From positions 1-39,907 of the forward strand of contig JADGBR010000033.1 of assembly GCA_015231405.1 (NCBI GenBank): 39,907 bases of DNA, in the 5' to 3' direction. The notes beneath the pieces are model-generated. The model was not told where the DNA came from. It ran no database searches and was given only the letters and a program-made list of their open reading frames with translations. This DNA comes from Candidatus Omnitrophota bacterium (lineage in GTDB: Bacteria > Omnitrophota > Gorgyraeia > Tantalellales > Tantalellaceae). The translations under genes were made by a program, and so were the position numbers. This document shows, one piece after another, positions 1 to 28,150 of this stretch; positions within the stretch are counted from its first letter, which is position 1, and the number at the start of each line of letters is the position of its first letter.

Positions 1-3000
1 CTGGGCGTCGGAGACACCGGCGATACCGCCCCAATGTTCGGCGGCGGCTCTAACGACCCTTCCCGACAGGTCTTTGACCCTCAAAAATTTATTCCGTCTC
101 TTCCATTTACCGAATTCTTTCAGCTCTTCCTCTCTTGGCGGCCTCAGGTTAAGGTCGATAAATAGTGCCTTCAGGAAATTCTCCCGGTCCGACAGGTCGT
201 CGTCGACGAGAAAACCGAGCCTTCGGGAAACCGCCGGAACACCGCCATGTTCCGCTGTCGCGTCCTTGAAAGCGTTGATATAATTTTTGATCACAGGAAA
301 ATACATCTCTTTTTCGTTCCGGGGATCCATGAACTTCTTGAGCTCTTTCTTCGTGGGCAGCTTATGGAACATCTCGATGTAAAGGAACCGGCAGTAATTA
401 TCCCATACCCCGAGCGACCACTTGCCGTCATAACGCCCGAGCCAGAAACCGAGCCTTTCCGCGACGCCCGAAAGGTTGCCGAAATGCTTGCTCCAGTGCA
501 GCGTTTTTGACGACACATCGCTCACTCTCAGGTATTTCCCCCTGTACTTCCATTTCCTGAAATCGCTAAGCTGTTTCTTATTCGGGTATCTGCCGTTCAG
601 GTCCTTGTAAAGTTCCTGGAGGAAATCGCCCCATTCCCTAAGGTCAAGGGTGCGGTAATCGTAGTTGATACTTCGAAAGAACCTGGCCCGTGGGCCGTGA
701 TACTTATCGATATTCTCAAAAACATCCCTGCCGAGTTTCCCCGGGGTAAGGTCGCTCGTATCGAATTTATTCTTTTTGACGAACTTTTTCTTTTCCTCAT
801 CCGTCGGCCAATGGCCGTTAAGGCGTTCATATATGGTCGAGATCACATTCTCACGTTTACGGAGCGACCGTTCCGGACCGCGTGTCCTCATCGTATAGCC
901 GAAACTCTCGCCTACGCCGCGCATGCCGCGGATAGGATCGAGACTGTTCGCGGCCTGGAGCACGCGGCCATAAGTGACACCGGCGGCCTGAGCCAGCATC
1001 ATTTTTCCGGGAAATTTCCGGCCCTCGTTCATAATTTTGGCCTCTTCCCGGTCGAGCATCCGTCTCATCTCCCCGCGTGTGGGTTCGCGATCCCGGTCGG
1101 CCATGAATATTACCCGGGCCATAACTTTTCGCTTGGATAGCGACTTCGAGCCCGTACGCTTTTCTTTTGTTCCGCCAAAAGCCCCTATCATTAAAAGCGG
1201 GACTTTTCCCGAGTACGCTAACACCGAATCGAAAGATCCGTGCATAGAGACAGCGGCTAAGACCGGAACGATATACGTATAGCTTTCGGAAAATCCCGAC
1301 CATGGATCCAGCCATGCCGCGAGGCCCGCGTATACCGCTCTAATAATAAACCCGAATACGCCTATCCCGAGGAGCAGTTTTTTATCCTTATTCCCTTTCC
1401 AGTCAATTTTTCGCGAGACGATCCGTTCTTTCTCAAAGAAATACAATTCTCCTGAAGCGGCATGGAAAGCGTAGGAGACGGCGGAACTCACAATAGCCAG
1501 GGTCAAATAGACCGTTATGCCCAGCGAAAAAGGCACCTTAAAACCCGGAGGCGCGAGATCGCACAGATATACTATCCCTTTCATCATCGCGAAACTGAAC
1601 ACCAGCTCTTCGAGCCCGCCTAAAAAGGCTATTGCCCGCTCAGGGACCCCTATAGCCCTGAGGGCCGGCACGGCGAATTTCCATATTAGCCCTATGAACT
1701 GAAGGGGCTTCGCCTCAGGCTTATCCGGGTCCTCGATATACCGGGCCATGTCCTGGGCGGAGAGCATTTCCTTAAATTTCCGGAAGGCGGCACTGAGTGA
1801 CGCGTCGAATTCCCTTAGCGATCTCGCGGCCCTTTCCCTGAGCAGCCGCCCTTCGATCGACATCGCGCGATATTTATCGTATATCGCCCTCCTATCCCCG
1901 CCGCTCGGGTCCTTCTTGTATAGCCTTCGGCAAATATCCACATAAAGTGGCCGTATCGAGGCGGGAAAAAGGGGTTTCAGCCTTAAAGCCTCGATGAGAA
2001 AGACGATCCGCGCGTTCAGGTCCTCAATGTACTTTACAGCCTCCTCCGGCACTTCTTCCCCGGAATATTTATCCAGGAGCCGCTCGAACTTCTGTAATAC
2101 GGCCGTCGCGTTATCTTCATCGTCGCATTCTGATATTCCCTTCTCCAGCTCCTCGCATCCGGCCATTATCTCCCGGTACCGCGCGTCGATTTCTTTATAC
2201 CTGGCGCCGGCGGCTTCGAGCCTCCTCTCAAGGCCAGCCAGTATCGAGCGCTTCCCATCGATCATTGCCCTTCCGGCGCTATGCAGCCTCGCTGCGGCCG
2301 CGTCGACTTCGGACCTTGCACCGGATAATTTTCCACTCGCTGCCCTATAGGCCCTTTGGACCAGGTCATCAGCTTTCCTTAAGAGCGCCCTCAATTTCTT
2401 GGCTTCTCCCTTAGCCGCCGCGACCCGGCCCAGTCTCTGCCGTTCGGCTTTTTCCTCTTCGATACGTCTTAGAAGCCTTTGGTGTTCCCGGGCGGCCGCA
2501 TCTTTTTTAGCCGCCGCCAATTTATCCGCGGCATCCCTAAGCCTTTCTTTCTGGGCGTCTTGAACGGCTTTAACTTCCCGTTCAATCGCTTCCCGCGCCT
2601 TACGCCTCTCTCCTTCGGCCTGTTTTCTCCCCTTCTTTTTTTCCTTTTCTATCGGACGTTTCTCGTCCCGTTCTTCTTTCTTTATTTTCTCCTCGGCTTC
2701 CCTGGCCTTTCTTTCTCGCCATGCTTTTACCCTATCAGCGGCTTTTCCCAGCGAAGAAAGGCCCCATACAGGCTTCTTTTTTGTCCATGTTCTGGTCTTC
2801 ACAACCGGCATCCGTTCGGTAATAAACCCGGCCGCCATTATCGCCGCGGATATACCTGCCGAAATAATTAAAGCTGCCGCGTCGTTATCCACAATGCCTG
2901 GGGAAAAGATATAAAACCCGATCCCTGCCAAGACGGCCACTACACCGTAAAGGGCTAGCGGTATCGCCCTGGCGTTACGCCTGGGTACCCGGTGTTTTCG

Positions 3001-5151
3001 AACATCCTCTCTTTTCTTCCCTTTCGGTTTCTCGACCGCGGTATCGTCACCGATCCTTTTCACCGGCCAGCGGATAGTGAGCGTCACCCCGCGTTCGGTC
3101 CTCTGACCCAGGGCCTTACGCCGCGCCAACTCTTCGGGCGTTCTTTCCTCTTCCGTCAGGGAATCAATAACGGCGCTGCCGCCGTTATCGGTCACGACCC
3201 GATGCATGCAGGCCTGTCCGGTCTCTTTGCGTTTGGTGAAGTCGGCGTCAGATACTTTCTTGAGATCTCGTTTAGATATCCCGGTCCCGTGGTCGATGAC
3301 CTTAACAACAAGATAGTCCCCGTCATCCGAAAATACTATCTTCGGTCCCTCAATGTCCTTTTCGCCGTTCAGAAAAGCCGCTTCCCGTGTGGCTTTTACG
3401 GCACCGCTTATGGCGTTATCCACGCTAAAAGCCAGCCATTTCCATTCGCCGCGGGGTACCAGATCGAAAAACGCGTGGTCAACCGGTACCTCAGCCGTAA
3501 ACATCCCATCCAGATTCTGGATGTCATTTTTTACCCTGTCGCGGATGAAATCCCCGGCTTGTGTTGTTACCAGAAGCCCTTTCCCCCTGCAAAAATTGAA
3601 CCATTCCTTATTCAAACCTAAAGTATCCAATAAAACCTGATCCATCGAAGAAGCGTCGGCATATTCGCCCGGCTTTTCACCGTTACCGAAAGTTGTTATG
3701 GACCTCAACATCCTTCGAAGCGACGCTAACCCAACTTTGATCAATCCTCCGAAATGATCGTCCGCCGGGATAGAAACCACTTCATCTCTGGCAGCAAGTG
3801 CCTCAGTTTCATTAACGGCTTCATTAAATAGCCGCTTCCATACTTCATACTCGTCCCTTATCATAACCTTCTGATAACGCGACCTGAATCTCGGGAGGAA
3901 TCTGATTTTGTCATATCTCGTGGAATGGAGCGAGTACTCTCTCAGTAACTTGAATATCCTTTTTATTTCATCAGCGCATCTTTTGACTCTATCTTCAACT
4001 CCAATAAATGCATCGTGGGCTCTATTCCTAAAATCGAGGGCGTCACCATGTCCGTAAGCGGCTCGTTGAGAGAGATAGAACCTTTCCTCGGCGCGATATC
4101 TTTCGGCGAACTCCTCTTTTTCGATGAAATACCTTTTGAGAACTGATACCGTATCTTCATTTTTTTCCGCGAGTTGTCCCCTTACCGGCTTCGTCAGATC
4201 TACCCTGTATCCGATAACATCCGAACCGTAACGGGTACCGTTCGGCCCGTCCTTGAAGATCAGGATAGCGCACTTATCGTCCAGTAAGAGATACGGCCTC
4301 TTCCAGAAATCGTCGCCCGAACAATTCTTGTCCGAAAGAGGCTCACCGCCGTGAACGATCTTTACAAAAGCGTCTACTATCGTGTCGTACGCTATACTTT
4401 TCCCGAGATACTCTCGGTACCCCTCCGGCACCTCCGCCGGGCCATGCTCGGCGGCTTTCCGGAGCGTCTCGTGTATACTCCCGTTATCACCTTCTATCCG
4501 CTCAAGCGCCCCTGTGAACCTCCTCAAAATATCCACCGCGTAAGCGCCGTATCCTGGATCGAACCCGTCGCCCTTGGGTATAAAGGTCCGTGAAACTTCA
4601 TCCATTGCCTTCTCGAGATCAATTACGCGAACCTCGCCTCCGGCAAGTTCGTATCTCATCCTTTTCTCTTCCCCTGCCGTTTCACTTAAGGTAAGTTCCA
4701 CCCCATGCCTCGTATATTCCATAGCCTCTATGCCGTATCCTCTAAAGCATTTCGATATTGAAGGGTTAATTGACGAGTCCCGGAGCTTTATAAGAGCCGC
4801 TCTGAACTTCTCAAAATACTCATCAATAGCCGCCGGGCTGAGTTTTAGAGCTTCCCTGACTTCAAGGTCCTTAAGGAATACTCCGATAAGCGCCTCGATA
4901 TAGGATTTGCCTACCTCCTTTTTATTCAAGTCAGTAAGACCTCTCTCCTCCCCGGGGACTTCCGTTATCTCGTATTCCCGTTTCACTTCATCCCAACGGA
5001 TAGCGTAAAGCGGGGCGAATATCGATGTGGGGGCAAGGGTGGATGTTGACGAAGCTTCATAGCGGTCAATGGCGAAGGAAATATCCTCACTGACCATGGC
5101 GGCGATCAGTAATACTGATGTTATCTTAAATGTAAGAGTACTTGCCTTCAT
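1..5151 (-). CDS. Giant secreted/membrane multidomain protein, partial (runs off left edge)
   Basis: One reading frame stays open from an ATG at 5151 to base 1: 1717 codons without a stop, with the C-terminus missing. Residues 1-27 look like a signal peptide. Residues ~570-690 resemble a GHKL/HATPase_c domain: an N-box-like DNAI with N579, a G1-like DHGTGIS at D620, a G2-like TGQ...NGG, then GVTLTIRWP. A possible phosphoacceptor helix lies near H368, but this is weak. Two hydrophobic segments (~730-778) are followed by a Lys/Glu/Arg/Ala-rich coiled coil (~800-1040). Residues ~1150-1315 form several membrane helices with EE (1181-1182), H1230 and HGSFD (H1304, D1308), resembling CPBP intramembrane proteases. 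From ~1350 onward come at least five repeats of about 75 residues. No known family covers the whole protein. Function is unknown; the architecture suggests an envelope sensor or scaffold, which is inference. Confidence 0.85.
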   Translation of the reverse strand, partial: MKASTLTFKITSVLLIAAMVSEDISFAIDRYEASSTSTLAPTSIFAPLYAIRWDEVKREYEITEVPGEERGLTDLNKKEVGKSYIEALIGVFLKDLEVREALKLSPAAIDEYFEKFRAALIKLRDSSINPSISKCFRGYGIEAMEYTRHGVELTLSETAGEEKRMRYELAGGEVRVIDLEKAMDEVSRTFIPKGDGFDPGYGAYAVDILRRFTGALERIEGDNGSIHETLRKAAEHGPAEVPEGYREYLGKSIAYDTIVDAFVKIVHGGEPLSDKNCSGDDFWKRPYLLLDDKCAILIFKDGPNGTRYGSDVIGYRVDLTKPVRGQLAEKNEDTVSVLKRYFIEKEEFAERYRAEERFYLSQRAAYGHGDALDFRNRAHDAFIGVEDRVKRCADEIKRIFKLLREYSLHSTRYDKIRFLPRFRSRYQKVMIRDEYEVWKRLFNEAVNETEALAARDEVVSIPADDHFGGLIKVGLASLRRMLRSITTFGNGEKPGEYADASSMDQVLLDTLGLNKEWFNFCRGKGLLVTTQAGDFIRDRVKNDIQNLDGMFTAEVPVDHAFFDLVPRGEWKWLAFSVDNAISGAVKATREAAFLNGEKDIEGPKIVFSDDGDYLVVKVIDHGTGISKRDLKKVSDADFTKRKETGQACMHRVVTDNGGSAVIDSLTEEERTPEELARRKALGQRTERGVTLTIRWPVKRIGDDTAVEKPKGKKREDVRKHRVPRRNARAIPLALYGVVAVLAGIGFYIFSPGIVDNDAAALIISAGISAAIMAAGFITERMPVVKTRTWTKKKPVWGLSSLGKAADRVKAWRERKAREAEEKIKKEERDEKRPIEKEKKKGRKQAEGERRKAREAIEREVKAVQDAQKERLRDAADKLAAAKKDAAAREHQRLLRRIEEEKAERQRLGRVAAAKGEAKKLRALLRKADDLVQRAYRAASGKLSGARSEVDAAAARLHSAGRAMIDGKRSILAGLERRLEAAGARYKEIDARYREIMAGCEELEKGISECDDEDNATAVLQKFERLLDKYSGEEVPEEAVKYIEDLNARIVFLIEALRLKPLFPASIRPLYVDICRRLYKKDPSGGDRRAIYDKYRAMSIEGRLLRERAARSLREFDASLSAAFRKFKEMLSAQDMARYIEDPDKPEAKPLQFIGLIWKFAVPALRAIGVPERAIAFLGGLEELVFSFAMMKGIVYLCDLAPPGFKVPFSLGITVYLTLAIVSSAVSYAFHAASGELYFFEKERIVSRKIDWKGNKDKKLLLGIGVFGFIIRAVYAGLAAWLDPWSGFSESYTYIVPVLAAVSMHGSFDSVLAYSGKVPLLMIGAFGGTKEKRTGSKSLSKRKVMARVIFMADRDREPTRGEMRRMLDREEAKIMNEGRKFPGKMMLAQAAGVTYGRVLQAANSLDPIRGMRGVGESFGYTMRTRGPERSLRKRENVISTIYERLNGHWPTDEEKKKFVKKNKFDTSDLTPGKLGRDVFENIDKYHGPRARFFRSINYDYRTLDLREWGDFLQELYKDLNGRYPNKKQLSDFRKWKYRGKYLRVSDVSSKTLHWSKHFGNLSGVAERLGFWLGRYDGKWSLGVWDNYCRFLYIEMFHKLPTKKELKKFMDPRNEKEMYFPVIKNYINAFKDATAEHGGVPAVSRRLGFLVDDDLSDRENFLKALFIDLNLRPPREEELKEFGKWKRRNKFLRVKDLSGRVVRAAAEHWGGIAGVSDAQ

Positions 5152-5159
5152 CGTAAGGC

Positions 5160-5179
5160 ATCCCCGCGAAAGCGGGGAT
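5160..5179. repeat. Short hairpin repeat, copy 1 (ATCCCCGC/GCGGGGAT)
   Basis: This perfect 8-base stem closes a GAAA loop. It sits 8 bases upstream of the giant gene's ATG on the minus strand, so the GGGGAT arm is also the only Shine-Dalgarno-like sequence near that start. The same palindrome recurs at 5223-5242 with the complementary loop. Confidence 0.8.
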
Positions 5180-5222: not shown

Positions 5223-5242
5223 ATCCCCGCTTTCGCGGGGAT
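5223..5242. repeat. Short hairpin repeat, copy 2 (inverted relative to copy 1)
   Basis: The same 8-base stem occurs here with loop TTTC, so the copy is inverted relative to 5160-5179. The flanks TGATC...ATGACGG also resemble the GTCATTGCG-type repeats later in the window. The pair is REP-like, and the two copies could pair with each other across 45 bases. Confidence 0.75.
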
Positions 5243-5458: not shown

Positions 5459-8365
5459 ATGAAACCCATTATTCATTTGCTACTGGTGCTAGGCATCGTG
5501 ATCACTCTAGAGTATTCTTTTTCAGAAGAACCGATACCATCTTACACTCCATCCTACATAAGCTCTAAACCCTTAACTGAAACACCTCTGCCGCTTAATT
5601 GGGCGTTAACTTCCGGCAAAGCTGAGACTTTTGTTAAAACCCTTGCCACAAGAACTTTTATAGCGGATGTCCGCCTCGATGCCGGTCAAAGCGCCTCTTC
5701 CGTCATAGGCGCATATCTCGACCTTCGGTATAACTCAGGGCTTGTTTATTCCGAACTGGCCAAAACCCTTCCAGGAAAGAAAATTCAGGTGGATGTCATC
5801 ATACCGGAATATACGTTCAAAAAACTGGACGCCGGGAGAGCAAAGGTAAGGCTAATAGTCAAATCCATTAACGGTGATAAATGGATAGATCTCAATAACG
5901 GGAAGGACTGGACCGAGATAACTCCGGACAAAACTATGACGCTTGGAGCCGTTCTGCCCGAAAGATCGGTTTCCACGAAAAACGGCCTGGAGTTCGACCC
6001 TTCGAATACGGCTTCTATCGCCGTCGAGATGAGGACCGGGAAGTTACAGGGGACCGAGAACCTTATCATGTTCATCCAGGATATAAGGATAGATAACTCA
6101 TCCCTCGACAAGCTGAAAATAAACCTCAATCTTATACGAGACGGCAAGGTCATGGGCGATACTTACATCCCTTCATACCCCGAAGGCACGAAGTTCATAC
6201 TTACGGCTGATGCAATAGCCTTCAAGGCCTCTCTCTCGGATGCCTCCGACATCACTTTTGATGGAAAATCTTCCGATTTCTTTTTGAATGTTCCGGTCCA
6301 TTTCCCGGGGGATGCAGGGCTCAAAGGATCGCTAGTCGTGACCTCAGTACTGGGAACAAGTACCATCGAGGTCAAAAGGGACCTTTCCGAAATAACTGTC
6401 GGTTCGGCTGCGAACGTATCTATCCCGCTGGACAAGTTAAGCGGCCCGATGGACCTTCGTGAAGCTTTGAAGGATATCGATATAAAAGTATCGGTCGAAC
6501 CCGAAAAAGAAAGCCCGCCCATTCCGATGGCTCTTTCGCCCGTCACGCTGGTCAAGGGCAGACTCGTGACATTCAGCTCCGGATGGAAAGAAAGGGACGC
6601 CCAGAAACTCGGGGGCTACAAATGCGTCGACGATAGCGGTAACCCCGGGGTCTGCGGGATAGCCGTATCGAAATTCGAGAACGACCCTTACCGCGCCCTG
6701 GTCACGATAAAAATGACCGGAGGGATAGATTGGACCAACCCATTTTACCGCGCTGAACTCGAAAAAGAATTCGAGAACACCCCCCGCGACCTGACGGATA
6801 CTCTTCTCGAGATCGAGATAAGCCCTGTCACCGACACGACGGAACTTTGGCAGACCCCTTACAGGGCGAGAATAGGGCTATTGGACATGAACGGGAATAT
6901 CATGTTCGGTCCTAACATTTCTTTGTCGGAAGGCCTTCCGGCTAAAGCCTATCTCAACGTGACTATGTCGGTACCATCCCCAAAAGGTTTCACCATGCCC
7001 GGCTTTGACCCGGCCAAAGTCAAATCCCTCATCATTAACGTGGAAGCCACCCAGACAGCGCATGATCCGCTGGAACTCTCCATCATGTTGAACAATCTTA
7101 ATATCCGCAACACCCCGGCCACCGTATCGCCCGCGTTCAAGAATTTCGATTTCAGTAGATTTAAGAGAGACCCGGAAAAATGGGCGATAAAAAAACTCGT
7201 CGATTCCAATGGCGGCTACATGATAGGTATAAACTACCCTTTCCCGACCGTTAAAGTGTCGAACCGGCTTCTCGAAGTCCCTGAGGTATACCCGACGGTC
7301 GGCAGGAAACCCGACGACCCGGGACATTTCGGATTCTCGAGCCCTGTAACAAAAGCCCAGACCATAGAAGACCTCTCTTTTTTCGCTTCCCGTGGCCTCC
7401 GGATCGTACGTATCTTCGGGTTAGGGCATCTTGACGGGGTGTTCAACTGGGATATGTCCAACAACTCGATAAGGGGCTTTGACAGGCATAAGGACGACTT
7501 GATCCGCGCCTCTATCGAAATGCCGGTCGAAAAATACGCGGAGCATCTCCGTAAGAACGAAAAATCGCTGTTCCCGTTCCGAAGAGGCATAACCGGGCTC
7601 AATTCGTTTGTCATTCCCGATCTCAGGGCTTTACTTACCGCCCTCGAGGAAGTCGAGCGTAAAACAGGCGTTCGCGAACTGGTGATCCTAGTCCTATACG
7701 ATTTCACCATCGCCGACGGCATAACGAAAGAAGGCCCCAACCGGAGATACAAGGTCGGCGAGCACCCGGAAGTCGTGACGGACCCCATGACCCGGCTTAA
7801 AGCCGAAGCTATTATCTGGAAAATGATGCGAACTATCGGAGCCGACGGACGGTTCAGGAAATATATCTCTGCGGTGGAAATAATGAACGAGCCGTCTAAC
7901 GCCGCCGCGGTAGTCACACCGGAACATTTCGCCGACCTCGTCAACATGGTCGGCGAGACCATGTATCTCGTCAAGGACGCTATAGGACCGGATATCCCGG
8001 TGACCATTGGCTTCGCCAGCTGGGCCCCGGACATAAAGTACTGGAAGACCCTTTCAGGCGGTATAGATATACTTATGCCCCATTACTGGGAAAGCCTGGA
8101 ATCTTATGATATTGACACCCTCGGGCTCTGGCCTCTGGACACCCCGGCAGAAAAGATATGGGAATACCTCGGCGCCGAAAAGAACGGCCGCTTGACCGGA
8201 ATGGGCGAAATAAGCCCGCTCGGTGGAAAGATCAAAGAAAATCTCGAAAGGCTCAAAACCGCCGGCTACGATTTCTCCCTCGTCTGGTCCTACTCCGGCC
8301 ACGACGGCTTCGACGCGAAGCCCGTTATGGATGAGATCAGCACCCCATCTCCAAAGCGTCCTTAA
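5459..8365 (+). CDS. Secreted clan GH-A glycoside hydrolase-like protein, copy 1
   Basis: This 968-residue protein begins with a signal peptide (~1-22). Two beta-rich, carbohydrate-binding-like modules follow (~60-220 and ~420-560); they resemble each other in phrases such as the GFDPAKVKSLII stretch and in their closing beta-strand pattern. The C-terminal ~380 residues look like a clan GH-A TIM barrel. MNEPSN carries the expected acid/base Glu (E811) and MGEIS the expected nucleophile (E917). I cannot assign a GH family or substrate. The ATG is supported by GGGAGGT seven bases upstream and by the promoter at 5360-5388. A paralogue follows directly. Likely role: extracytoplasmic polysaccharide cleavage or remodelling, which is inference from the fold. 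Confidence 0.85.
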   Translation: MKPIIHLLLVLGIVITLEYSFSEEPIPSYTPSYISSKPLTETPLPLNWALTSGKAETFVKTLATRTFIADVRLDAGQSASSVIGAYLDLRYNSGLVYSELAKTLPGKKIQVDVIIPEYTFKKLDAGRAKVRLIVKSINGDKWIDLNNGKDWTEITPDKTMTLGAVLPERSVSTKNGLEFDPSNTASIAVEMRTGKLQGTENLIMFIQDIRIDNSSLDKLKINLNLIRDGKVMGDTYIPSYPEGTKFILTADAIAFKASLSDASDITFDGKSSDFFLNVPVHFPGDAGLKGSLVVTSVLGTSTIEVKRDLSEITVGSAANVSIPLDKLSGPMDLREALKDIDIKVSVEPEKESPPIPMALSPVTLVKGRLVTFSSGWKERDAQKLGGYKCVDDSGNPGVCGIAVSKFENDPYRALVTIKMTGGIDWTNPFYRAELEKEFENTPRDLTDTLLEIEISPVTDTTELWQTPYRARIGLLDMNGNIMFGPNISLSEGLPAKAYLNVTMSVPSPKGFTMPGFDPAKVKSLIINVEATQTAHDPLELSIMLNNLNIRNTPATVSPAFKNFDFSRFKRDPEKWAIKKLVDSNGGYMIGINYPFPTVKVSNRLLEVPEVYPTVGRKPDDPGHFGFSSPVTKAQTIEDLSFFASRGLRIVRIFGLGHLDGVFNWDMSNNSIRGFDRHKDDLIRASIEMPVEKYAEHLRKNEKSLFPFRRGITGLNSFVIPDLRALLTALEEVERKTGVRELVILVLYDFTIADGITKEGPNRRYKVGEHPEVVTDPMTRLKAEAIIWKMMRTIGADGRFRKYISAVEIMNEPSNAAAVVTPEHFADLVNMVGETMYLVKDAIGPDIPVTIGFASWAPDIKYWKTLSGGIDILMPHYWESLESYDIDTLGLWPLDTPAEKIWEYLGAEKNGRLTGMGEISPLGGKIKENLERLKTAGYDFSLVWSYSGHDGFDAKPVMDEISTPSPKRP

Positions 8366-8456: not shown

Positions 8457-11318
8457 ATCAAGTTCTTTACTAACCTAATTCTTTCCACAGTTCTTGTTTT
8501 TTTCCCCGGAGTTTCTTTTTCCCAGGAAAGATCTGAGCCTTATCCGTCTTATAGCGAGACAAAGACCCTTACCGAAACACCACTTGAATTTTATTGGAGA
8601 ACCACTTCCGGTAACCCGGGAACCTTTGTCGATACCCTTTCGGAAAAGACCTTTATAGCCGATGTCCCTCTTACCGGCATCCAGGGACGATCAACTGTCA
8701 TAGGAGCCTATCTTGACCTCAGGTACAATGCGGGATTCATTTACTCGCAGCTGTCGGAGACCCTTCCCGGAAAAAGGATCGAGATCGACGTCATGGTGCC
8801 GGCCGATACTTTTATGAGGCTGGATAAAGCGAGGGCAAAGGTCCGTCTTGTAGTCAAATCCATAAACGGAAATAAGTGGATAGATCTCAATAACGGCAAT
8901 TTCTGGACCGATATCTCCCCCGATAGAACTATGACCCTGCAAGCTATTTTACCCGAAAAGCCGGCCTCCCCGAACAACCCCCTGGCGTTCGACTCCTCCC
9001 ATATCGCCGCCATCGCCGTGGAGATGAGAACGGGCAAAATATCCGGAGAGGAAGATATTGTCATGCTTATCCAGGATATCAGGATAGAGAACACCGCTAT
9101 CGACCTCTCCAAAATAGATCTTAATCTTATACGGGATAACAAGGTCATAGAAAATACTTATCTCGAATCGTATCCTAAAGGCACAAAATTACTTCTTTCA
9201 GGCGGTCAGACCGGTTTATCCGTATCATTCCCTGAAACAAAAGGTATCTCACCGGCGGCAAACCCTTCCGATTTCTTTTTGGAGATCCCCGTTAATTTCC
9301 CCGCGGACGCCCTTATTACCGGCTCTCTAACGACCACTTCGACCATTGGCTTAAAGACACTGTCGGTCAAAAGCAACCTTGCCGAAATAGTGGCCGGCAG
9401 CGCGGATAGTGTTTTGATCCCTCTCGACAAATTAAACGTCCGGAAAGATCTTGATGCGACGCTTAGAAAGATCGATATTAAATTATCTTTTGAGACCGGA
9501 AAAGAAGACCCGCCCGTGCCTCTTGCCCTTCGCCCTATCACTCTGATCAAGGGACGCCTTGTCCCTTTCAACTCGGGATGGAAAGAAAGAGGCCGTAATA
9601 AGCGCGGGATAACCCTCTCAAAATACGAGTTCGACCCTTACCGTGTACTCGCCACGATAAAAATGCGGGGCGGCATAGACTGGTCCAACCCTTTTTACCG
9701 GGCGGAACTTGAAAAGAAATTTTATAATGCCCCGGTGGATCTTACTGACACCCTTATCGAGATGGAAATAAGCCCTGTCACGGACACGACACGCGTGTGG
9801 CAAACCCCTTACAGGGCGAGGGTAGGACTTTTGGACATGAACGGGAATATCATGTTCGGCCCGAATATATCACTGTCGGAAGGGCTACAGGCCAAGGTTT
9901 ACCTAAATGTGACCACATCCGTACCTTCGCCGAAAGGCCTTATGATGCCGGGTTTTAACCCGGCCAAAGTTAGGTCCCTCATCATCAACATCGAAGCCAC
10001 CCAGATACCTCAGCCCCCCCTGGAACTCTCTGTTATATTAAGCAACCTCAATATCCGCAGCGCAAAGAGATCCGTTTCGCCGGCATATAAAACTTTCGAC
10101 TTCAGCAAATTCAAAAGAGAACCGGACAACTGGGAAATAAAAAAACTGGTGGATTCCGAAGGCGGTTACGCTATCGGGATAAACTATCCCTTCCCCTCCA
10201 TTAAAGTATCGCCCCTGCTTCTCGAGGTCCCGCAAGTGTACCCGACGGTCGGCAGAAAACCCGATGACCCGGGGCATTTCGGTTTTTCGAGCGTCTTGAC
10301 AAAAGAACAGACGATAGAAGACTTTTCATTATTCGCATCCAAAGGCATTAAAATAGTCCGCGTCTTCGCTCTCGGACACCTCGACGGCGTGTTCAATTGG
10401 GATATTAACAATACAGGTATCATGGGCTTTGAAAAACGAAAAGACGCCATCATCAGACAGGCGATCGATATGCCGGTCGAGAGATACGCAGATCTCTTAA
10501 AAGACAACGAAAGAGCTTTGTTCCCCTGGAGGAACAGTACGACAGGCCTGGGGCCTTTTGTCATTCCGGATTTCCTCGCTTTACTGGACGCTCTTGAGGA
10601 GGTCGAGAAGAGAACAGGTATCCGCGAGCTAGTGATCCTCGTTCTCTACGATTTCACTCTGGCCGACGGCATAAAAAAAGAAGGGCCCGGCAGAAGATAC
10701 AAGGTAGGTGAGCACACCGAGGTCGTGACGGACCCATTGACCAGGTTAAAAGCTGAAGCGATAATATGGAAAATGATGCGGACGCTCCACGCCGACCCGC
10801 GCTTTAAACGATATATAGGCGCGATCGAAATAATGAACGAACCGTCAAACGCCGCAGCGGTCGCGACACCCGAACATTTCGCGGACCTGGTCAATATGGT
10901 TGGTGAAACGATGTACCTTGTCAAAGACGCTACAGAAGGAGACATACCCGTGACCATAGGCTTCGCCAGCTGGGTGATCGACCTCAAATACTGGAAAACC
11001 CTTTCCGACGGGATAGACATCCTCATGCCTCATTACTGGGAAAGCCTGGAATCCTACAACATCGACACCCCGAAACTCTGGCCGCTGGACACCCCCGCTG
11101 AAAAGATATGGGAACACCTCGGCGCCGAAAAGAACGGCCGCTTGACCGGAATGGGCGAAATAAGCCCGCTCGGGGGAAAGATCAAAGAAAATCTCGAAAG
11201 GATCAAAAAAGCCGGCTACGATTTCTCCCTCGTCTGGTCCTACTCCGGCCACGACGGCTTCGACGCGAAGCCCGTTATGGACGAGATCAGCTCCGCTTCT
11301 ACCGACGCCAAGGGATAA
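8457..11318 (+). CDS. Secreted clan GH-A glycoside hydrolase-like protein, copy 2 (non-standard start)
   Basis: This is a paralogue of the preceding gene along its whole length: signal peptide, two beta-rich modules, and a GH-A-like barrel with E795 in MNEPSN and E901 in MGEIS, counting from 8457. The frame is open from a TAG at 8415, yet it holds no ATG, GTG or TTG until ATG 8793. Starting there would remove the signal peptide and ~112 residues that match copy 1. The homologous signal peptide begins at ATC AAG TTC TTT (8457), about 12 bases after AAAGGA. I therefore place the start at that ATC, which is either a rare ATC initiation, a start-codon mutation, or a base error. From ATC the protein has 953 residues. 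Its last ~174 coding bases are almost identical to copy 1. Confidence 0.75.
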   Translation: MKFFTNLILSTVLVFFPGVSFSQERSEPYPSYSETKTLTETPLEFYWRTTSGNPGTFVDTLSEKTFIADVPLTGIQGRSTVIGAYLDLRYNAGFIYSQLSETLPGKRIEIDVMVPADTFMRLDKARAKVRLVVKSINGNKWIDLNNGNFWTDISPDRTMTLQAILPEKPASPNNPLAFDSSHIAAIAVEMRTGKISGEEDIVMLIQDIRIENTAIDLSKIDLNLIRDNKVIENTYLESYPKGTKLLLSGGQTGLSVSFPETKGISPAANPSDFFLEIPVNFPADALITGSLTTTSTIGLKTLSVKSNLAEIVAGSADSVLIPLDKLNVRKDLDATLRKIDIKLSFETGKEDPPVPLALRPITLIKGRLVPFNSGWKERGRNKRGITLSKYEFDPYRVLATIKMRGGIDWSNPFYRAELEKKFYNAPVDLTDTLIEMEISPVTDTTRVWQTPYRARVGLLDMNGNIMFGPNISLSEGLQAKVYLNVTTSVPSPKGLMMPGFNPAKVRSLIINIEATQIPQPPLELSVILSNLNIRSAKRSVSPAYKTFDFSKFKREPDNWEIKKLVDSEGGYAIGINYPFPSIKVSPLLLEVPQVYPTVGRKPDDPGHFGFSSVLTKEQTIEDFSLFASKGIKIVRVFALGHLDGVFNWDINNTGIMGFEKRKDAIIRQAIDMPVERYADLLKDNERALFPWRNSTTGLGPFVIPDFLALLDALEEVEKRTGIRELVILVLYDFTLADGIKKEGPGRRYKVGEHTEVVTDPLTRLKAEAIIWKMMRTLHADPRFKRYIGAIEIMNEPSNAAAVATPEHFADLVNMVGETMYLVKDATEGDIPVTIGFASWVIDLKYWKTLSDGIDILMPHYWESLESYNIDTPKLWPLDTPAEKIWEHLGAEKNGRLTGMGEISPLGGKIKENLERIKKAGYDFSLVWSYSGHDGFDAKPVMDEISSASTDAKG

Positions 11319-11402: not shown

Positions 11403-13301
11403 TCATTCCTTTTCTTTTTCAGGAGAGCCTGTCGTCGGATCGGAATTTTCGCGATGGTCTTCCTCCGACACTTTACCCGTCATCATCGCCAGGTTCAGCG
11501 GATAATGGTCGGGGTGGAAGATGTTAAAGTAGAGGTGCCAGACTATTATCGCCAGGACCGCGAGTATGGCCTCGAAGAAATGGATGGTCCTCGCCACGTC
11601 AAATATCCACATGGCAAGAAACTGCATGAAAAAATCCTGGAACATAAGCACTGACCCCGTGACGGTCATAATAACGCCGCCCCACACAAGCGCCCAATAT
11701 TCGGATTTCTCAATGTAGCTGTATCTCGCGTATTTCGGTTTTCCCTTGCGGAGCCCGAAATAGAACAGCACCGTAAAGAAAACATCCGTGAAATCCCTCT
11801 TTTTTACCATCATCGCCCTGAGCTGTTGTCTTCCCCGCGCCGTGAAGAACAGATAATAAGCATGGTATACCGCGAGGACAACAAAGATGACCGCGAGTAT
11901 CCTATGGGCGATCCCACGCCAGTCGAAGCCCGGGTTAATAAGCCTGAAAGGCAAAGCCCACCACGCGTCGCTCGCCCTGAGCGCGAATCCCGTATACGCC
12001 AGGAGCGTAAAAGAAACGGCGAGCCCGATATGCTGCATCCGTTCGCCCAGAGTAAAACGGTCGTACAGATCTATCCCCTGCTTGCGGCGATAGTAGGCCC
12101 TGAACGCCGCCAGAAAATCCAGCAGATTATGGAGAAGCATTCCGCCTATCGTCATTACGATGAGCGCTATATAGATCACGGTCACATAGAAAACCATCTG
12201 GTCCTGTCTCACCGAAGGCGCGAGATGAACGTTGCCTTTTGCGAGCCTTTCGCCGGCGTTAGGATGACATTTGCCGCAGGTTTTAGGCAGGTTCTTCTTA
12301 TTCACGTCCGAAGCCGGATCGCTCGACGGGAGGATATTATGGATGCCATGACATGACGCGCAGTTCGCGACCGTCGTCACGCCCAGCTTCCCCGCCAGGC
12401 CGTGATAACTTTTCATGTAAGACTCTACCATCCCGGCCGGCAAACCGTATTTGGAGATAATTTTTTCCGACGCGTGACATTGGCCGCAGGTCTTCTCCGC
12501 TATGACGGAGGAGTAGACCGACGAACCTGGGTCAGAATGGGATCTTATCGTATGCTCACCGTGGCAACTCGTGCAAACGGGCGCGTCACGTTTCCCCGCC
12601 GCGACAGCTTTACCATGAACGCTGCGCGAATATGTCATAAGAACGTTTTCATGGCATTTGCCGCATGTCTTTGGGACATTGGACCAGAATATCTTTGAGT
12701 TAGGGTTCGCCGGGGATGAAAGATCATGCGAACCATGGCAGTCCGTGCATTCCGCCGAAGACGCCAGCCCTTTTTCCCTGAAAGCTTTGCCGTGGACGGT
12801 TTCCAGGTACGACGCGACCGGCCGCTTTTCCAAAAGGTCATATTTCGACATCAGGTTCGCGTCTTCATGGCAGCGTGAACATGTCTCGGGTATGTTCATC
12901 CGATAAACGGGAGAGCCCGTATCACGCGTGTTGAGTAAATTGTGCGGCTCTCCATGACAATCCAGGCAGCTGGCCGCGGCAACCCCGGCCTTGACCGCCC
13001 TGCCATGATCAGAGGCGGAATAGATCTCCGATTCGGTATTATGGCATTTGGCGCAGTCGACTTTCGCAGGTTTTTCGGCGTGCGGGGCCTCATGGACATC
13101 GTTGTGGCAGGAAGTACACAGGTTCTTGCCATGCACGGACGAACCGTATTTCTCGAAGTTAGCGCCTTCATGGCAGGAAAGGCAATCGTCGTTGGATATT
13201 TCTTCGGCCGAATAGCCCCTGGACGCGGAAATGGCGCATACCGCCAGGAACAAAAATACCGCCCGCGCGGCGCGAATAAATGTCATTCTTCCTGTCGTCA
13301 T
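11403..13301 (-). CDS. Eleven-heme cytochrome c fused to a cytochrome b-type membrane domain
   Basis: This 632-residue protein has a signal/anchor (~10-31) and eleven CXXCH motifs between C40 and C342. The C-terminal half has about five membrane helices (~369-395, 422-442, 463-486, 535-555, 572-595) with candidate heme b histidines H391, H424, H466, H480, H574 and H589. This resembles the cytochrome b561/formate-dehydrogenase gamma-like family. Known family logic suggests quinol or quinone exchange at the inner membrane coupled to a periplasmic heme wire. It is the last gene of the heme/cytochrome run, 13 bases after ccsA. M6 (13286), preceded by AGGA, is an alternative start. Confidence 0.85.
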   Translation of the reverse strand: MTTGRMTFIRAARAVFLFLAVCAISASRGYSAEEISNDDCLSCHEGANFEKYGSSVHGKNLCTSCHNDVHEAPHAEKPAKVDCAKCHNTESEIYSASDHGRAVKAGVAAASCLDCHGEPHNLLNTRDTGSPVYRMNIPETCSRCHEDANLMSKYDLLEKRPVASYLETVHGKAFREKGLASSAECTDCHGSHDLSSPANPNSKIFWSNVPKTCGKCHENVLMTYSRSVHGKAVAAGKRDAPVCTSCHGEHTIRSHSDPGSSVYSSVIAEKTCGQCHASEKIISKYGLPAGMVESYMKSYHGLAGKLGVTTVANCASCHGIHNILPSSDPASDVNKKNLPKTCGKCHPNAGERLAKGNVHLAPSVRQDQMVFYVTVIYIALIVMTIGGMLLHNLLDFLAAFRAYYRRKQGIDLYDRFTLGERMQHIGLAVSFTLLAYTGFALRASDAWWALPFRLINPGFDWRGIAHRILAVIFVVLAVYHAYYLFFTARGRQQLRAMMVKKRDFTDVFFTVLFYFGLRKGKPKYARYSYIEKSEYWALVWGGVIMTVTGSVLMFQDFFMQFLAMWIFDVARTIHFFEAILAVLAIIVWHLYFNIFHPDHYPLNLAMMTGKVSEEDHRENSDPTTGSPEKEKE

Positions 13302-13314
13302 GGTGTGTATTACT

Positions 13315-14088
13315 TTATCTCCCGTAACTATGCAGCCCTTTCAAAAGATAATTCACTCCGAAATATGTAAAAACCATAGCCATAAAACCTACTACCGACA
13401 CCCACGCCACCTTCTTGCCGCGCCACCCTTTTCTGGTCCGCTGGTGAAGGTATATCGCGTAAATGAACCATGTGATGAGCGACCAGGTCTCTTTAGGGTC
13501 CCAGCTCCAGTAAGTGCCCCAGGCCGAATTTGCCCATACCGAACCGCTTATGATACCGAGCGTAAGGAAAAGGAACCCGAACGCTATCATCCGGTAGCTG
13601 ATTGTATCCAGGTTCTCGTCCTCGTCCTTTCGGACGAGGAGTACCGCGCTTGAAACAAAAGACACCGTTAACGCCGCATACCCTATGAAGCAGGTAAGCA
13701 CATGTATCGTCAGCCAGTTGCTTTTCAGCGCCGGAAGGAGAGGCGTTATCGTCTTATCCAGGAGAGCCGCGTACCCTAATGCGAGAAGGCTTACGAGGAC
13801 CGCGCCCATGGCGATCGGCCTCGACTTATATCTCAGATCGACGAAAACCGCGACTATGGCTATAGCCCATCCGAAGACGACCAGGGATTCGAACATGTTG
13901 CTGAAGGGCGGCCTTCCCGCGATCTGCCACCGTATCACGAGATATGCCGATATGAAGGTGATGCCGGCGATAACCGCGCCCCTGGCCAGCGCCGGGAGGA
14001 ACTTTTTACCGAAGAACGTGTCAGCCGCGTAAAAGACCACGGAGAGAAAATACAGGCCGAAACCGGCATTGAGGAACAGCGTTGCCAT
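13315..14088 (-). CDS. ccsA: System II cytochrome c biogenesis protein CcsA/ResC
   Basis: This polytopic membrane protein of 257 residues carries the WWD signature near its C-terminus (WANSAWGTYWSWDPKETW). Flanking histidines (IHVLT before it and YLHQRT after it) match the external heme ligands of the family. With its partner ResB it delivers heme across the inner membrane and attaches it to CXXCH motifs. It starts three bases after resB ends, so the two are surely co-transcribed. Length fits the CcsB/CcsA type family (about 250-300). At least five cytochrome genes or membrane heme handlers lie in the same run and would depend on it. Confidence 0.93.
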   Translation of the reverse strand: MATLFLNAGFGLYFLSVVFYAADTFFGKKFLPALARGAVIAGITFISAYLVIRWQIAGRPPFSNMFESLVVFGWAIAIVAVFVDLRYKSRPIAMGAVLVSLLALGYAALLDKTITPLLPALKSNWLTIHVLTCFIGYAALTVSFVSSAVLLVRKDEDENLDTISYRMIAFGFLFLTLGIISGSVWANSAWGTYWSWDPKETWSLITWFIYAIYLHQRTRKGWRGKKVAWVSVVGFMAMVFTYFGVNYLLKGLHSYGR

Positions 14089-14091
14089 TTC

Positions 14092-15210
14092 TTAACTCCT
14101 TTTGACCACGGGATTGACATAGAATATGATGATGACCCCGGCGATCAGCAATAAGAACCCCGCGTACACGACCGGCACTCCCGGGTCCCTTACGACCTGT
14201 AATCCCGTCCAGTTGAGCGCTTCGGTATCATAAGAGGACTGGAAGAATTTATATCCTCCGTAACTGAGGGGCTCATTGACGCGGATATCTTTCTTCACGA
14301 CCTCAGTCGTTCCTTTCAACACCGTAACTCTGCTTATATAATCCTTGGGCATACGTCCGACCCACCGGTACAAGAACCTGAAATTCTGGTCGGTCTTCTG
14401 GTGCATATCAGGGAACCTCGCGAATACCCAGAACCTGCTGACTTTACCGGCCTTATCGGTGAACTGAACTTCGACGGCAGGGTTATTGGGTTCGAACGAA
14501 CGGCTGGTCGCGGTCTTAGTGGCTGTATCCATAGCGAAATCGGGAAGATATCTGAGGATCTTTACCCTGTAACCGGTATCCGCGACAGCCGTTTCAACTC
14601 CTACATCCGTCGGGACTTCGGCTATTACTTTAGGTCCATTGCCGGGCATAGCCATTCCGGCGTGGGCGCCCATCCCGCCGTGCGTTTCCGCGCCGCTATC
14701 AGATTCGCAAACCAGCAATTTTTCTTTGGGATCGATATGTTCGGTATAGACGAAATCATCCAGCCTCAATGAAAACCCGAGATCCACCGACCGGCCCTTG
14801 TAGACAAAGGAGTTTATCGCCTTCCCTTTGTCTATAGCCACGTATTCCTTCTCGCCGAAGACGAGGCCGATAGCCGCTCCTAGAAGTATGACAAGGATGC
14901 TGAGGTGAGAGATAAAACTTCCGAGCTTGACCGCCCTGAGCGGAAGTTTATTCACGAGACATACCGCCAGGTTCAGCGCGAGCGCGAACAAAAAGAGAAT
15001 GAACCACCATGAATAGTAAAGCCGGTCAAACCCCGCCCGCATGATAAGGTCATAGCCTACCTGCCCGACTTTGCTTATGTAGAACTCGGAGGTTTCACCC
15101 TGGGGTATGAGCGTCCCTATGAGCGAACAAAAGGATATGACGCCAAGCAGCCATATGGCCAGTTTTATCGACGAGAAAAATCTCCATACCCCGGTATTTT
15201 TTATGTTCAT
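14092..15210 (-). CDS. resB: System II cytochrome c biogenesis protein ResB/Ccs1
   Basis: This 372-residue protein has the ResB layout: helices near residues 18-35, 60-85 and 97-120, a large periplasmic domain, and one C-terminal helix (~345-365). The opening phrase FFSSIKLAIWLL followed by GTLIPQ is typical of the family. ResB and CcsA form the heme lyase of system II. A Gly/His/Met-rich stretch (~175-190, GGMGAHAGMAMPG) lies in the periplasmic part and is unusual; metal or heme contact is possible but unproven. The gene starts ten bases after the c554-like cytochrome gene ends. Confidence 0.9.
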   Translation of the reverse strand: MNIKNTGVWRFFSSIKLAIWLLGVISFCSLIGTLIPQGETSEFYISKVGQVGYDLIMRAGFDRLYYSWWFILFLFALALNLAVCLVNKLPLRAVKLGSFISHLSILVILLGAAIGLVFGEKEYVAIDKGKAINSFVYKGRSVDLGFSLRLDDFVYTEHIDPKEKLLVCESDSGAETHGGMGAHAGMAMPGNGPKVIAEVPTDVGVETAVADTGYRVKILRYLPDFAMDTATKTATSRSFEPNNPAVEVQFTDKAGKVSRFWVFARFPDMHQKTDQNFRFLYRWVGRMPKDYISRVTVLKGTTEVVKKDIRVNEPLSYGGYKFFQSSYDTEALNWTGLQVVRDPGVPVVYAGFLLLIAGVIIIFYVNPVVKRS

Positions 15211-15220
15211 ATCATTCCTG

Positions 15221-15745
15221 TCACTTCTTCGCGGGATGGGTTATCTTCTTGACCGCTTCGTCGTAATTGAATTCCTTGTAATTCGGATTATCCTTGTTGT
15301 GACACTTCTCGCAGACCTCTTTTGTCGGCATGATAAGGCCGCCGGCAATGGATTTTTCCCTCGACTTCATCACGCTTAAACTCAGATAATCTGAGCCCGC
15401 TCCGTGGCATGTTTCGCACTGCACTCCTTCGGAAGCGATGAACCCTTCAGCCTGTTCCCCGCCGTAACCGGTAGTGTGGCATTTAAGACACTCCGGAGCC
15501 TTCTGGGGATCTCCGGCAAGGCCGACCCTCTTTGCCGTTTCCAGAGCTTCGGGGCTTGCGAGCGTTCCATAAGCCTTCGCGTGCCCGGTTGACTGCCATT
15601 GCCCGAACTGGTTCCCTTTCGCCTCCGACTTATGGCACATCGAGCATTTTTTTACTCCTACATATTTATGGACAGCCTCAGCTGCGACAGACCCAGAAAC
15701 AAATAGAGCCATAACCGCTAATAACGCCAGTTTTTTCGCGCTCAT
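15221..15745 (-). CDS. Periplasmic tetraheme cytochrome, c554-like
   Basis: A signal peptide (~1-23) precedes four CXXCH motifs at C34, C86, C110 and C145 in a 174-residue protein. The pattern KCSMCHKSE...GQWQSTGHAKAY is characteristic of the cytochrome c554 family, whose name does not fix a function here. A strong ribosome binding site (AGGGAGGGG) supports the ATG. Its place between hemL and resB suggests a soluble shuttle between the membrane-bound 11-heme cytochrome b fusion and the outer-membrane conduit, which is inference. Confidence 0.88.
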   Translation of the reverse strand: MSAKKLALLAVMALFVSGSVAAEAVHKYVGVKKCSMCHKSEAKGNQFGQWQSTGHAKAYGTLASPEALETAKRVGLAGDPQKAPECLKCHTTGYGGEQAEGFIASEGVQCETCHGAGSDYLSLSVMKSREKSIAGGLIMPTKEVCEKCHNKDNPNYKEFNYDEAVKKITHPAKK

Positions 15746-15771: not shown

Positions 15772-15812
15772 TCCGTCATTGCGGGGACACGCAGTGTCCG
15801 AAACGATCTCTA
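15772..15812. repeat. Partial GTCATTGCG-type palindromic repeat
   Basis: CCGTCATTGCGGGG, a small hairpin GGACAC-GCA-GTGTCC (15785-15799) and AACGATCTCTAT match one half of the larger repeats at 23101 and 28021. It lies between hemL and the c554-like gene. It looks like a decayed or half element. Confidence 0.55.
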
Positions 15813-17132
15813 TAATATTTTAATCCCGCGGATTGTCCCTTCCGCGGCCTGAACCGTTCGTTTGATGTCCTTGAAACTGTGCTTCAACGAAATAAAATTC
15901 GCCTCGAACTGGGAAGGCGCGAGATAAACACCCCGCGACAGCATGCCGCGAAAGAAGGAAGCGAAAGCTTTTGTGTCGCATCCGGAGGCGTCATCATAAT
16001 CGATTACATCTCTCTTCCCGGTAAAAAAAAGCGTGAAGAGGGACCCGCATCTCTTCATCGTTACATTAACCCCATTGCGGAGTAAAAAGTTCCCTATTCC
16101 TTCCTCTAAAGCCCCCCCAAGATCGTTGAGCCTGCCATAGGTCCCTTTCTTCATAAGGGCCTTTATCGTGGCTATCCCGGCTTCGACGGCCACCGGGTTA
16201 CCTGAGAGCGTCCCGGCCTGGTACACTGGACCATCGGGAGCTAATAGGCCCATAATATCGTCCCTGCCGCCGAAAGCGCCTATGGGAAAACCCCCGCCCA
16301 GTATTTTACCCAGCACCGTAAGGTCCGGCTTTATCCCATAAATTTCCTGGGCTCCGCCTAAGGCCACGCGGAAACCGCTAATGACCTCGTCAAAAATAAG
16401 AACGATACCGTTCTCCTTCGTGATCTCTCTTATCTTAGCATGGAACCCGGCCCGGGGCAACACAAGTCCCATATTGGCCGGTATTGGTTCGAGTATAACA
16501 CAGGCGATATTACCCTTTTCTCTCTTGACCGCCGCCTCGAATTTTTCGATGTCGTTAAAAGGGACCACTATCGTATCGGCGGCTACGCTCTTATTTATCC
16601 CTTTCGAGCTCGGGACGCCGAAAGTGGCCGCGCCCGAACCGGCCTTTACAAGAAGGCTGTCGGCATGGCCGTGGTAACAGCCTTCGAATTTCAGTATCTT
16701 CTCCCGCCCCGTGAAACCCCGCGCGAGCCTTATCGCGCTCATCGCCGCCTCTGTACCCGAAGAAGTAAGGCGGACCTTTTTTATCGAGGGGTATATCTCC
16801 GTAATGAGACGCGCGAGCTCTATCTCTTTCACCGTAGGCGCCCCAAAAGTCGTCCCCCTCTTCATAGCGGCGGCCGCTCTCCTTAACACCATCTCGTCTG
16901 CATGGCCCAGTATGAGCGGCCCCCACGACATGACGTAATCGATGAACTTATTGCCGTCCACGTCGCGGATATAGGCGCCATTGCCGCTCGAAATAAAAAT
17001 GGGATGTTTACCTACGGCCTTAAAAGCCCTGACGGGGCTATTCACCCCGCCGGGAATGTACTTAGCGGCAAGGGTGTAGCACTTACCGGATGCACCGAAA
17101 TTTTTTTTCACTTTGCCGCACTTCCACGTCAA
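15810..17132 (-). CDS. hemL: Glutamate-1-semialdehyde 2,1-aminomutase
   Basis: This PLP enzyme converts glutamate-1-semialdehyde to 5-aminolevulinate, the second step of the C5 heme pathway. The N-terminal IPGGVNSPVRAF, the SSGTEA phosphate-binding loop, FDEVISGFR and the PLP lysine K276 in LGKILGGGFPIGAF are all present, and the length is normal. The longest frame begins at TTG 17132, which overlaps the stop of the preceding barrel gene. GTG 17111 would bring the N-terminus closer to the family norm and is my alternative. The gene is separated from the other hem genes by the MtrA/MtrB-like pair, so conduit and precursor supply are expressed together. Confidence 0.95.
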   Translation of the reverse strand: MTWKCGKVKKNFGASGKCYTLAAKYIPGGVNSPVRAFKAVGKHPIFISSGNGAYIRDVDGNKFIDYVMSWGPLILGHADEMVLRRAAAAMKRGTTFGAPTVKEIELARLITEIYPSIKKVRLTSSGTEAAMSAIRLARGFTGREKILKFEGCYHGHADSLLVKAGSGAATFGVPSSKGINKSVAADTIVVPFNDIEKFEAAVKREKGNIACVILEPIPANMGLVLPRAGFHAKIREITKENGIVLIFDEVISGFRVALGGAQEIYGIKPDLTVLGKILGGGFPIGAFGGRDDIMGLLAPDGPVYQAGTLSGNPVAVEAGIATIKALMKKGTYGRLNDLGGALEEGIGNFLLRNGVNVTMKRCGSLFTLFFTGKRDVIDYDDASGCDTKAFASFFRGMLSRGVYLAPSQFEANFISLKHSFKDIKRTVQAAEGTIRGIKIL

Positions 17133-19162: not shown

Positions 19163-19173
19163 TTCTAACCCTC

Positions 19174-19959: not shown

Positions 19960-19971
19960 GCTTCCCCTTCC

Positions 19972-20460: not shown

Positions 20461-20479
20461 AATATTCAAAATAAAAACC

Positions 20480-20593: not shown

Positions 20594-20594
20594 G

Positions 20595-23057: not shown

Positions 23058-23100
23058 GTTTTGCCTTTTGGTAGCGTAAGGATACGCATATTAGTTTAGT

Positions 23101-23205: not shown

Positions 23206-23225
23206 CCAATTTTGAATTTTCCAAA

Positions 23226-24392: not shown

Positions 24393-24404
24393 TATTATTT
24401 TCCT

Positions 24405-28122: not shown

Positions 28123-28150
28123 AATTAAGCTAATATTCGAATTTTGAATT

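What the first reader, a model, noticed from the sequence alone, without database searches (positions are those of the whole stretch)
1..5151. Giant envelope protein joining a kinase-like ATPase fold, coiled coil, protease-like membrane domain and long repeats
A single frame of 1717 codons, cut by the window edge, combines parts not usually found together: signal peptide, HATPase-like motifs (N579, D620-H-G-T-G), two membrane helices, a ~240-residue charged coiled coil, a second membrane region, and a repeat array. Because an ATPase-like domain and a protease-like domain lie in one secreted or membrane polypeptide, it could be a self-contained sensing and proteolysis device, or a structural giant. 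No description of this exact order is known to me. The frame and motifs are seen; the function is inference.
Basis: partly seen in the sequence, partly recalled or inferred. Interest (0 to 1): 0.8.

Follow-up and report, generated by a model that had tools for sequence, protein, structure and literature searches.

The report
Tagged giant mosaic protein of Omnitrophota
The gene is a truncated piece of a real, roughly 3,700-residue mosaic protein from an uncultured Omnitrophota bacterium, and it carries the same start tag (and probably the same end tag) as many other giant proteins in that phylum, which suggests that these "poorly conserved" giants share one handling or export route.

Summary
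The open frame is real: 1717 codons, typical codon usage, cut only by the contig edge. The protease reading is not supported. The gene very likely continues on another contig of the same genome (C58), adding the rest of the repeat array, a radical-SAM domain and a stop, about 3,700 residues in all.

The larger finding is outside the given coordinates. The first ~45 residues (signal peptide ending D-I-x-F/W-A, then TLAPxSxF) are a recurrent header: 195 of 384 Omnitrophota genomes, 23 matches here. It starts unusually long frames (top 150 matches: median 1,489 aa, 74% at least 1,000). In one complete genome, header genes have median 1,040 aa against 282 for the rest. Many header proteins also share a divergent C-terminal footer ending in alanine. 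Between the tags are shuffled, mostly intracellular-type modules: glutamate dehydrogenase, radical SAM, HATPase, methyltransferases, TPR/HEAT. The window's repeat array recurs in three other giants (4,419-8,868 aa).

Giant Omnitrophota ORFs are known; a shared header/footer was not found in Pfam, NCBIfam or the papers searched. That the header drives export is inferred, not shown.

The parts
5071..5151 (-). Header, part 1: signal-peptide-like N-terminus (aa 1-27, MKASTLTFKITSVLLIAAMVSEDISFA)
   Evidence: Matches the phylum-wide header model A3 (E=2.0e-16); consensus (K/R)..F(K/R).I(A/S)..L...FL..DI.(W/F)A. Cleavage after Ala27 is inferred from the -3/-1 rule.
5017..5040 (-). Header, part 2: TLAPTSIF motif (aa 38-45)
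   Evidence: L39 invariant in the 26-sequence header alignment A3; TLAPxSxF is the majority sequence.
4636..5070 (-). Header, part 3: longer N-terminal domain (to ~aa 172) shared by a subset of giants
   Evidence: aa 9-172 match G000:C16 (E=4.8e-15) and giants of G015, G025, G014; profile A1 finds it in 28 of 285 genomes.
4189..4305 (-). Conserved block before the ATPase (aa 283-321, W.RPYLLLDDKCAILIFKDGPNGTRYGS..IGY)
   Evidence: 56% identical over 39 aa to the G080 937-aa ORF that also carries the HATPase domain.
3052..3456 (-). HATPase_c (GHKL) domain, ~aa 566-700; N579, D620-H-G-T-G
   Evidence: Pfam PF02518 E=1.2e-4; homolog above cut-off; AF2 plus Foldseek to CheA P4/WalK/BCKDK.
2821..2964 (-). 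Membrane helix pair (aa 730-777)
   Evidence: Hydropathy.
2002..2754 (-). Charged, basic coiled-coil-like stretch (~aa 800-1050)
   Evidence: Sequence; K+R 90 against D+E 63 over aa 780-1130.
1216..1704 (-). Second membrane domain (aa 1150-1312), about 5 helices; no protease family detected
   Evidence: Hydropathy; Pfam negative.
1..1152 (-). Helical repeat array (from aa 1334), repeat core (H/Y)GG..(A)V..(L/F)G(F/Y), units ~75-95 aa; continues on contig C58
   Evidence: Homologous arrays in giants G032 (two copies), G104, G268; weak Pfam PF18780 HNH_repeat in 2 of 5 members (E=0.01); AF2 helical, pLDDT 72.7.
5160..5179 (.). Perfect palindrome just upstream of the start (REP-like)
5223..5242 (.). 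Second copy of the palindrome

Best explanation
This is one member of a large set of giant mosaic proteins of Omnitrophota that share handling tags. A conserved N-terminal header (a specialised Sec-type signal peptide followed by TLAPxSxF) and, in many, a short divergent C-terminal footer ending in alanine flank a variable middle built of interchangeable modules. The tags would send each giant through a common export and sorting route; the modules do the work. In this copy (~3,700 aa) the middle holds a GHKL-type ATPase, a membrane-anchored coiled coil, a membrane domain, a basic helical repeat array distantly like DNA-recognition repeats, and a radical-SAM enzyme. Shown: header, recurrence, association with length, module sharing, ATPase fold, intact radical-SAM cysteines. 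Moderately supported: the C58 continuation and the footer. Inferred: signal-peptide cleavage, export, common sorting route, nucleic-acid binding, and that the ATPase and radical-SAM domains are active.
For: Header model A3: 195 of 384 phylum genomes at E<=1e-3 per genome (about 0.4 false matches expected over the whole set), 23 matches in the own genome at E<=0.01. The inspected header matches lie within the first ~60 residues of their frame. The top 150 matches have median frame 1,489 aa, 74% at least 1,000. In the single-contig genome G232: header genes median 1,040 against 282 aa, Mann-Whitney p=1.4e-8; at least 1,000 aa odds ratio 41, p=2.7e-8; against other signal-peptide-like ORFs 1,040 vs 270 aa, p=2.4e-8. 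C-terminal Ala in 7 of 9 readable header genes of G232 against 5.9% (p=8e-8) and 12 of 15 in the own genome; footer pattern. C58 continuation: frame open exactly at the contig end, in the same array, starting at model position 288 where the window stops at 267, ending in a footer-like LDTKA. Mosaic cargo.
Against: No experiment on location. Much of the cargo (glutamate dehydrogenase, radical SAM, NUDIX, kinases) normally works in the cytoplasm with ATP, NAD or SAM, which fits poorly with export unless the target is another cell's interior. The footer is very divergent: a footer HMM trained on the own genome puts only 3 of 8 header genes of G232 in the top 25 of 1,047. The C58 join rests on homology and contig ends, with no overlapping sequence. 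Some header ORFs are short, and some giants (G104, G268) start with a different N-terminus. The header was not tested outside Omnitrophota.
Confidence: 0.6

Rival explanations
1. The header is an uncleaved membrane anchor: the giants are inner-membrane-tethered intracellular multi-enzyme assemblies (fused metabolic operons), with the cargo facing the cytoplasm after further helices.
For: Cargo is largely intracellular-type and looks intact (radical-SAM CxxxCxxC, dehydrogenase glycine motifs, HATPase N-box); several giants have further membrane helices that could return the chain to the cytoplasm; the repeat array is basic.
Against: The header has the charge pattern of N-in/C-out and small residues at -3/-1; some giants have no second helix by hydropathy, for example G076 (2768 aa).
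Confidence: 0.25
2. The giants are polyproteins: the tagged chain is cut into separate enzymes after synthesis, possibly at linkers such as TDPSGAAP.
For: Five near-identical D(P/S)SGAAP linkers occur in the G032 8868-aa frame; its modules are recognisable, unrelated enzymes.
Against: No such linker was seen in the window protein; no processing protease was identified; the linker was not looked for systematically elsewhere.
Confidence: 0.1
3. One reading: a self-contained envelope sensing-and-proteolysis machine.
For: ATPase domain, coiled coil and membrane domain are on one chain.
Against: No protease family in the membrane domain; no phosphoacceptor (HisKA) domain reported by Pfam.
Confidence: 0.03
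4. Artefact: frame open by chance, mis-assembly or an altered code.
For: Assembled contig with the gene cut at the edge.
Against: Shuffles reach 297 codons at most; homologs of several segments in independent genomes.
Confidence: 0.02

Closest known systems
Giant ORFs of Omnitrophota (Seymour et al. 2023, PMC10066038)
   Same: Very long frames with multiple membrane helices and few annotated domains, common in the phylum; tied there to a symbiotic or predatory lifestyle.
   Different: That paper calls them poorly conserved and stresses adhesion domains and surface-polysaccharide degradation; in the passages read no shared N- or C-terminal tag and no intracellular-type enzyme cargo is described.
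GHKL / HATPase_c (histidine kinases, BCKD kinase, CheA P4)
   Same: Fold and N-box plus D-x-G-x-G motif.
   Different: No HisKA phosphoacceptor found; ATP-lid glycines altered (TGQAC in place of GLGL); sits in a ~3.7-kaa tagged chain.
Homing endonuclease associated repeat (PF18780 HNH_repeat)
   Same: Weak profile similarity in 2 of 5 array members (E=0.01).
   Different: No nuclease alongside; no structural match; the array is below the family cut-off.
Tagged secretion systems with a conserved signal peptide or C-terminal sorting domain (YSIRK-type signal peptides, type IX CTD; from general knowledge)
   Same: A recurrent terminal tag on otherwise unrelated proteins.
   Different: Different sequences; the footer is a short tail ending in Ala, not an immunoglobulin-like CTD; no cognate machinery identified here.

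Membership tests
HATPase_c / GHKL fold | Profile match, N-box Asn and D-x-G-x-G motif, Bergerat fold | tested here: met
   N579, D620-HGTG. The window's own profile score is just under the curated cut-off; its homolog is above it.
Two-component histidine kinase | HisKA/DHp phosphoacceptor domain with conserved His | tested here: not met
   No such Pfam match in the whole protein or in the segment before the ATPase
CPBP/CAAX membrane protease | PF02517 match with EExxxR / FxxxH / HxxxN motifs | tested here: not met
   No match at E up to 10; an EE pair and HGSFD are present, but EExxxR lacks its Arg and FxxxH its Phe
Omnitrophota giant ORFs (>20 kb in Seymour et al.) | Single ORF longer than 20 kb | tested here: not met
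   Estimated ~11 kb in two contigs; a relative carrying its array reaches 26.6 kb in one frame
Omnitrophota header proteins (defined here) | Header model A3 at the start of the frame | tested here: met
   E=2.0e-16; the window sequence is one of the 26 seeds. Before seeding, its N-terminus matched other giants at E=4.8e-15 to 1e-5
Omnitrophota header proteins (defined here) | C-terminal footer ending in Ala | tested here: inconclusive
   Met by the C58 half (FTFTPVESLDIDKFGRLSRVQEKALDTKA*), but the join is inferred
HNH_repeat DNA-binding repeats | PF18780 match above curated cut-off in the window array | tested here: not met
   Only sub-threshold, in 2 of 5 members, not in the window's own array
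Radical SAM (C58 half) | PF04055 match and CxxxCxxC | tested here: met
   E=2.1e-6, 28.4 bits (just under the cut-off of 29.5); CPFNCAHC present; visibly similar to the G076 giant's domain (E=2.1e-14)

The most novel reading that the evidence does not exclude
Omnitrophota have a dedicated, undescribed export and sorting route for giant multi-enzyme proteins, recognised by the header (and footer), that places cytoplasm-type enzymes outside the cell or into a host or prey cell.
Probability: 0.3. Interest if true: 0.9.

Novelty: new variant of a known kind. Interest (0 to 1): 0.68.

Why it matters
Giant proteins of Omnitrophota are among the longest known, and their function and export are open questions, partly because they look unrelated to each other. 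A common N-terminal tag turns many of them into one recognisable set, predicts members from about 50 residues, and makes the export question testable with a short reporter fusion. The mosaic cargo of apparently intact, intracellular-type enzymes challenges the view that these giants are mainly adhesins or wall-degrading coats.

Tried and rejected
IMG/VR search with the array: nothing. Header and array alignments were too variable for collection pattern scans; a closer header subset worked and gave named Omnitrophota records. Array match to citrate synthase: a short shared 'LPTKKEL' helix, judged chance. Foldseek of the array: no match at E<1. PspA, EF-hand, erythropoietin, DUF1549 and sensor-kinase hits: compositional or sub-threshold. 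CPBP protease for the membrane domain: considered from EE and HxxxD, rejected. A footer HMM transferred across families: weak. Testing the header outside the phylum: not possible with the tools.

Full report
The observation. The frame 5151..1 (-) is real. It runs 1717 codons without a stop and is cut by the contig edge; the window is the whole 39,907-base contig C26 of a 3.66-Mb, 93-contig genome. Shuffled sequence gives at most 297 codons, and codon usage resembles the neighbouring genes.

Domains in the window. HATPase_c matches residues 577-697 just under Pfam's cut-off. A 937-aa ORF in another Omnitrophota genome (G080) shares both this domain and a block at 283-321 (56% identity over 39 aa) and scores well above the cut-off. 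The AlphaFold2 model of 544-706 finds ATP-binding domains of CheA, WalK and BCKD kinase; its alignment contained ordinary kinases, so this is support, not independent proof. No phosphoacceptor domain was found. The membrane region 1150-1312 matches no protease family. From residue 1334 a helical repeat array begins; homologous arrays lie in three other giants: G032 (8,868 aa, a frame that fills a whole contig, two arrays), G104 (5,897 aa, another class) and G268 (4,419 aa). The array resembles homing-endonuclease-associated repeats only weakly, so nucleic-acid binding is a guess.

The missing end. A profile of the arrays searched against the own genome finds one further match: contig C58, model positions 288-414, E=3.5e-19. 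C58 is 8,045 bases; the match starts at its very end in a frame of 1,979 codons open at that end and closed by a stop. The window stops at model position 267. No other own-genome contig carries the array at E<=10. It adds the rest of the array, one membrane helix, and a radical-SAM domain with intact CPFNCAHC, close in sequence to the radical-SAM domain of a giant from another family (G076).

The header. Searching relatives showed that the N-terminus, not the middle, is the widely shared part. A 54-position model of signal peptide plus TLAPxSxF (26 sequences) finds matches in 195 of 384 genomes of the phylum at a per-genome E of 0.001, where about 0.4 false matches are expected, and 23 in the own genome at E<=0.01 on frames of 126 to 7,588 codons. 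Two of the matching contigs are named records of Candidatus Omnitrophota / Omnitrophica, which fixes the phylum. The 30 inspected matches lie in the first ~60 residues of their frame.

Header and length. The 150 best matches have a median frame of 1,489 codons; 74% are at least 1,000 and 12 are at least 5,000. To avoid relying on a ranked list, I took a complete single-contig genome (G232) and called ORFs: 1,283 genes, 14 with a header. Header genes have a median of 1,040 aa against 282 (p=1.4e-8), and 7 of 37 genes of at least 1,000 aa carry it against 7 of 1,246 shorter ones (p=2.7e-8). Against ORFs with a signal-peptide-like start but no header the contrast is the same (270 aa, p=2.4e-8). 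Only one of the 14 was in the model's seed. ORF calling was crude and runs of N break several large genes, so the association is probably underestimated.

The footer. The C-termini of header giants look alike: a hydrophobic strand, Pro, an acidic/Pro turn, a helix-like stretch, and a final Ala. The prediction 'ends in Ala' was then tested in G232: 7 of 9 readable header genes against 5.9% of all genes (p=8e-8); in the own genome, where the pattern was first noticed, it is 12 of 15. One family (f17) ends in AI instead. A footer HMM transfers poorly between families, so I rate the footer as probable, not established.

Cargo. Between the tags lie unrelated modules: in the own genome glutamate dehydrogenase, two HATPases, radical SAM, TPR and HEAT in one 6,804-codon frame; phosphotransacetylase and GNAT, HD and aldolase domains, chorismatase-like and L-PSP domains in others; NAD-epimerase; elsewhere ARMT1 and radical SAM, NUDIX and NTP-transferase, methyltransferases, a protein kinase. 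The G032 giant, whose N-terminus is not in the contig, holds phosphorylase, 4-alpha-glucanotransferase, debranching, glutamate dehydrogenase, APH and alcohol dehydrogenase modules with repeated TDPSGAAP linkers. The few active-site motifs inspected look intact, which argues against a purely structural role.

How it probably works. The simplest reading is a family-wide targeting tag: Sec-type signal peptide, a recognition motif just after the cleavage site, and a C-terminal tail, around interchangeable work modules. Export fits the header's design; the cargo's need for cytoplasmic cofactors fits either delivery into another cell or a membrane-tethered intracellular assembly. The literature held here links Omnitrophota giants to symbiosis or predation and calls them poorly conserved (PMC10066038; PMC12057145); preprints on giant genes are not in the library. 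Neither Pfam nor NCBIfam returned a header family.

Limits. Export, cleavage and activity are untested; the header was not searched outside the phylum; the C58 join is inferred; the length statistics come from one complete genome plus ranked lists.

Noticed in passing
window 15810-28603: Cluster that by reading looks like a siroheme-dependent (alternative) heme pathway: hemL-, AhbA/B-, two radical-SAM (AhbC/D-like), hemB-, cobA/hemD-, hemC-, hemA- and Met8-like genes, next to multiheme cytochromes and cytochrome c assembly genes (11403-15745).
   Followed up: no
window 30247-36823: Run of genes that look like heterodisulfide reductase HdrABC with ferredoxin/flavin oxidoreductase subunits.
   Followed up: no
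window 5459-8365 and 8793-11318 (+): Two neighbouring ORFs (968 and 841 aa) without Pfam matches that end almost identically (LVWSYSGHDGFDAKPVMDEIS), so they are partial paralogs.
   Followed up: partly
window 5160-5179 and 5223-5242: Two perfect REP-like palindromes ATCCCCGC(GAAA/TTTC)GCGGGGAT directly upstream of the giant gene (0.01 expected by chance).
   Followed up: partly
G104, G268, several G232 genes, L047: A second recurrent N-terminal module in Omnitrophota giants, with core '(V)I(H)IQDAH..Y.AQ..I..I..Y', sometimes behind a header.
   Followed up: no
L014/L015 (G032:C37): A 26.6-kb contig that is one open frame (8,868 codons) of fused glycogen-metabolism and other enzymes with five TD(P/S)SGAAP linkers.
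   Followed up: partly
L189 (C58) 72-1730 (-): A further header ORF (553 codons) directly downstream of the giant gene's second half; its C-terminus looks frame-broken.
   Followed up: no
G281, G191 (family f17): Header giants of this family end in QAI/AAI/SAI instead of Ala, possibly a family-specific footer.
   Followed up: no
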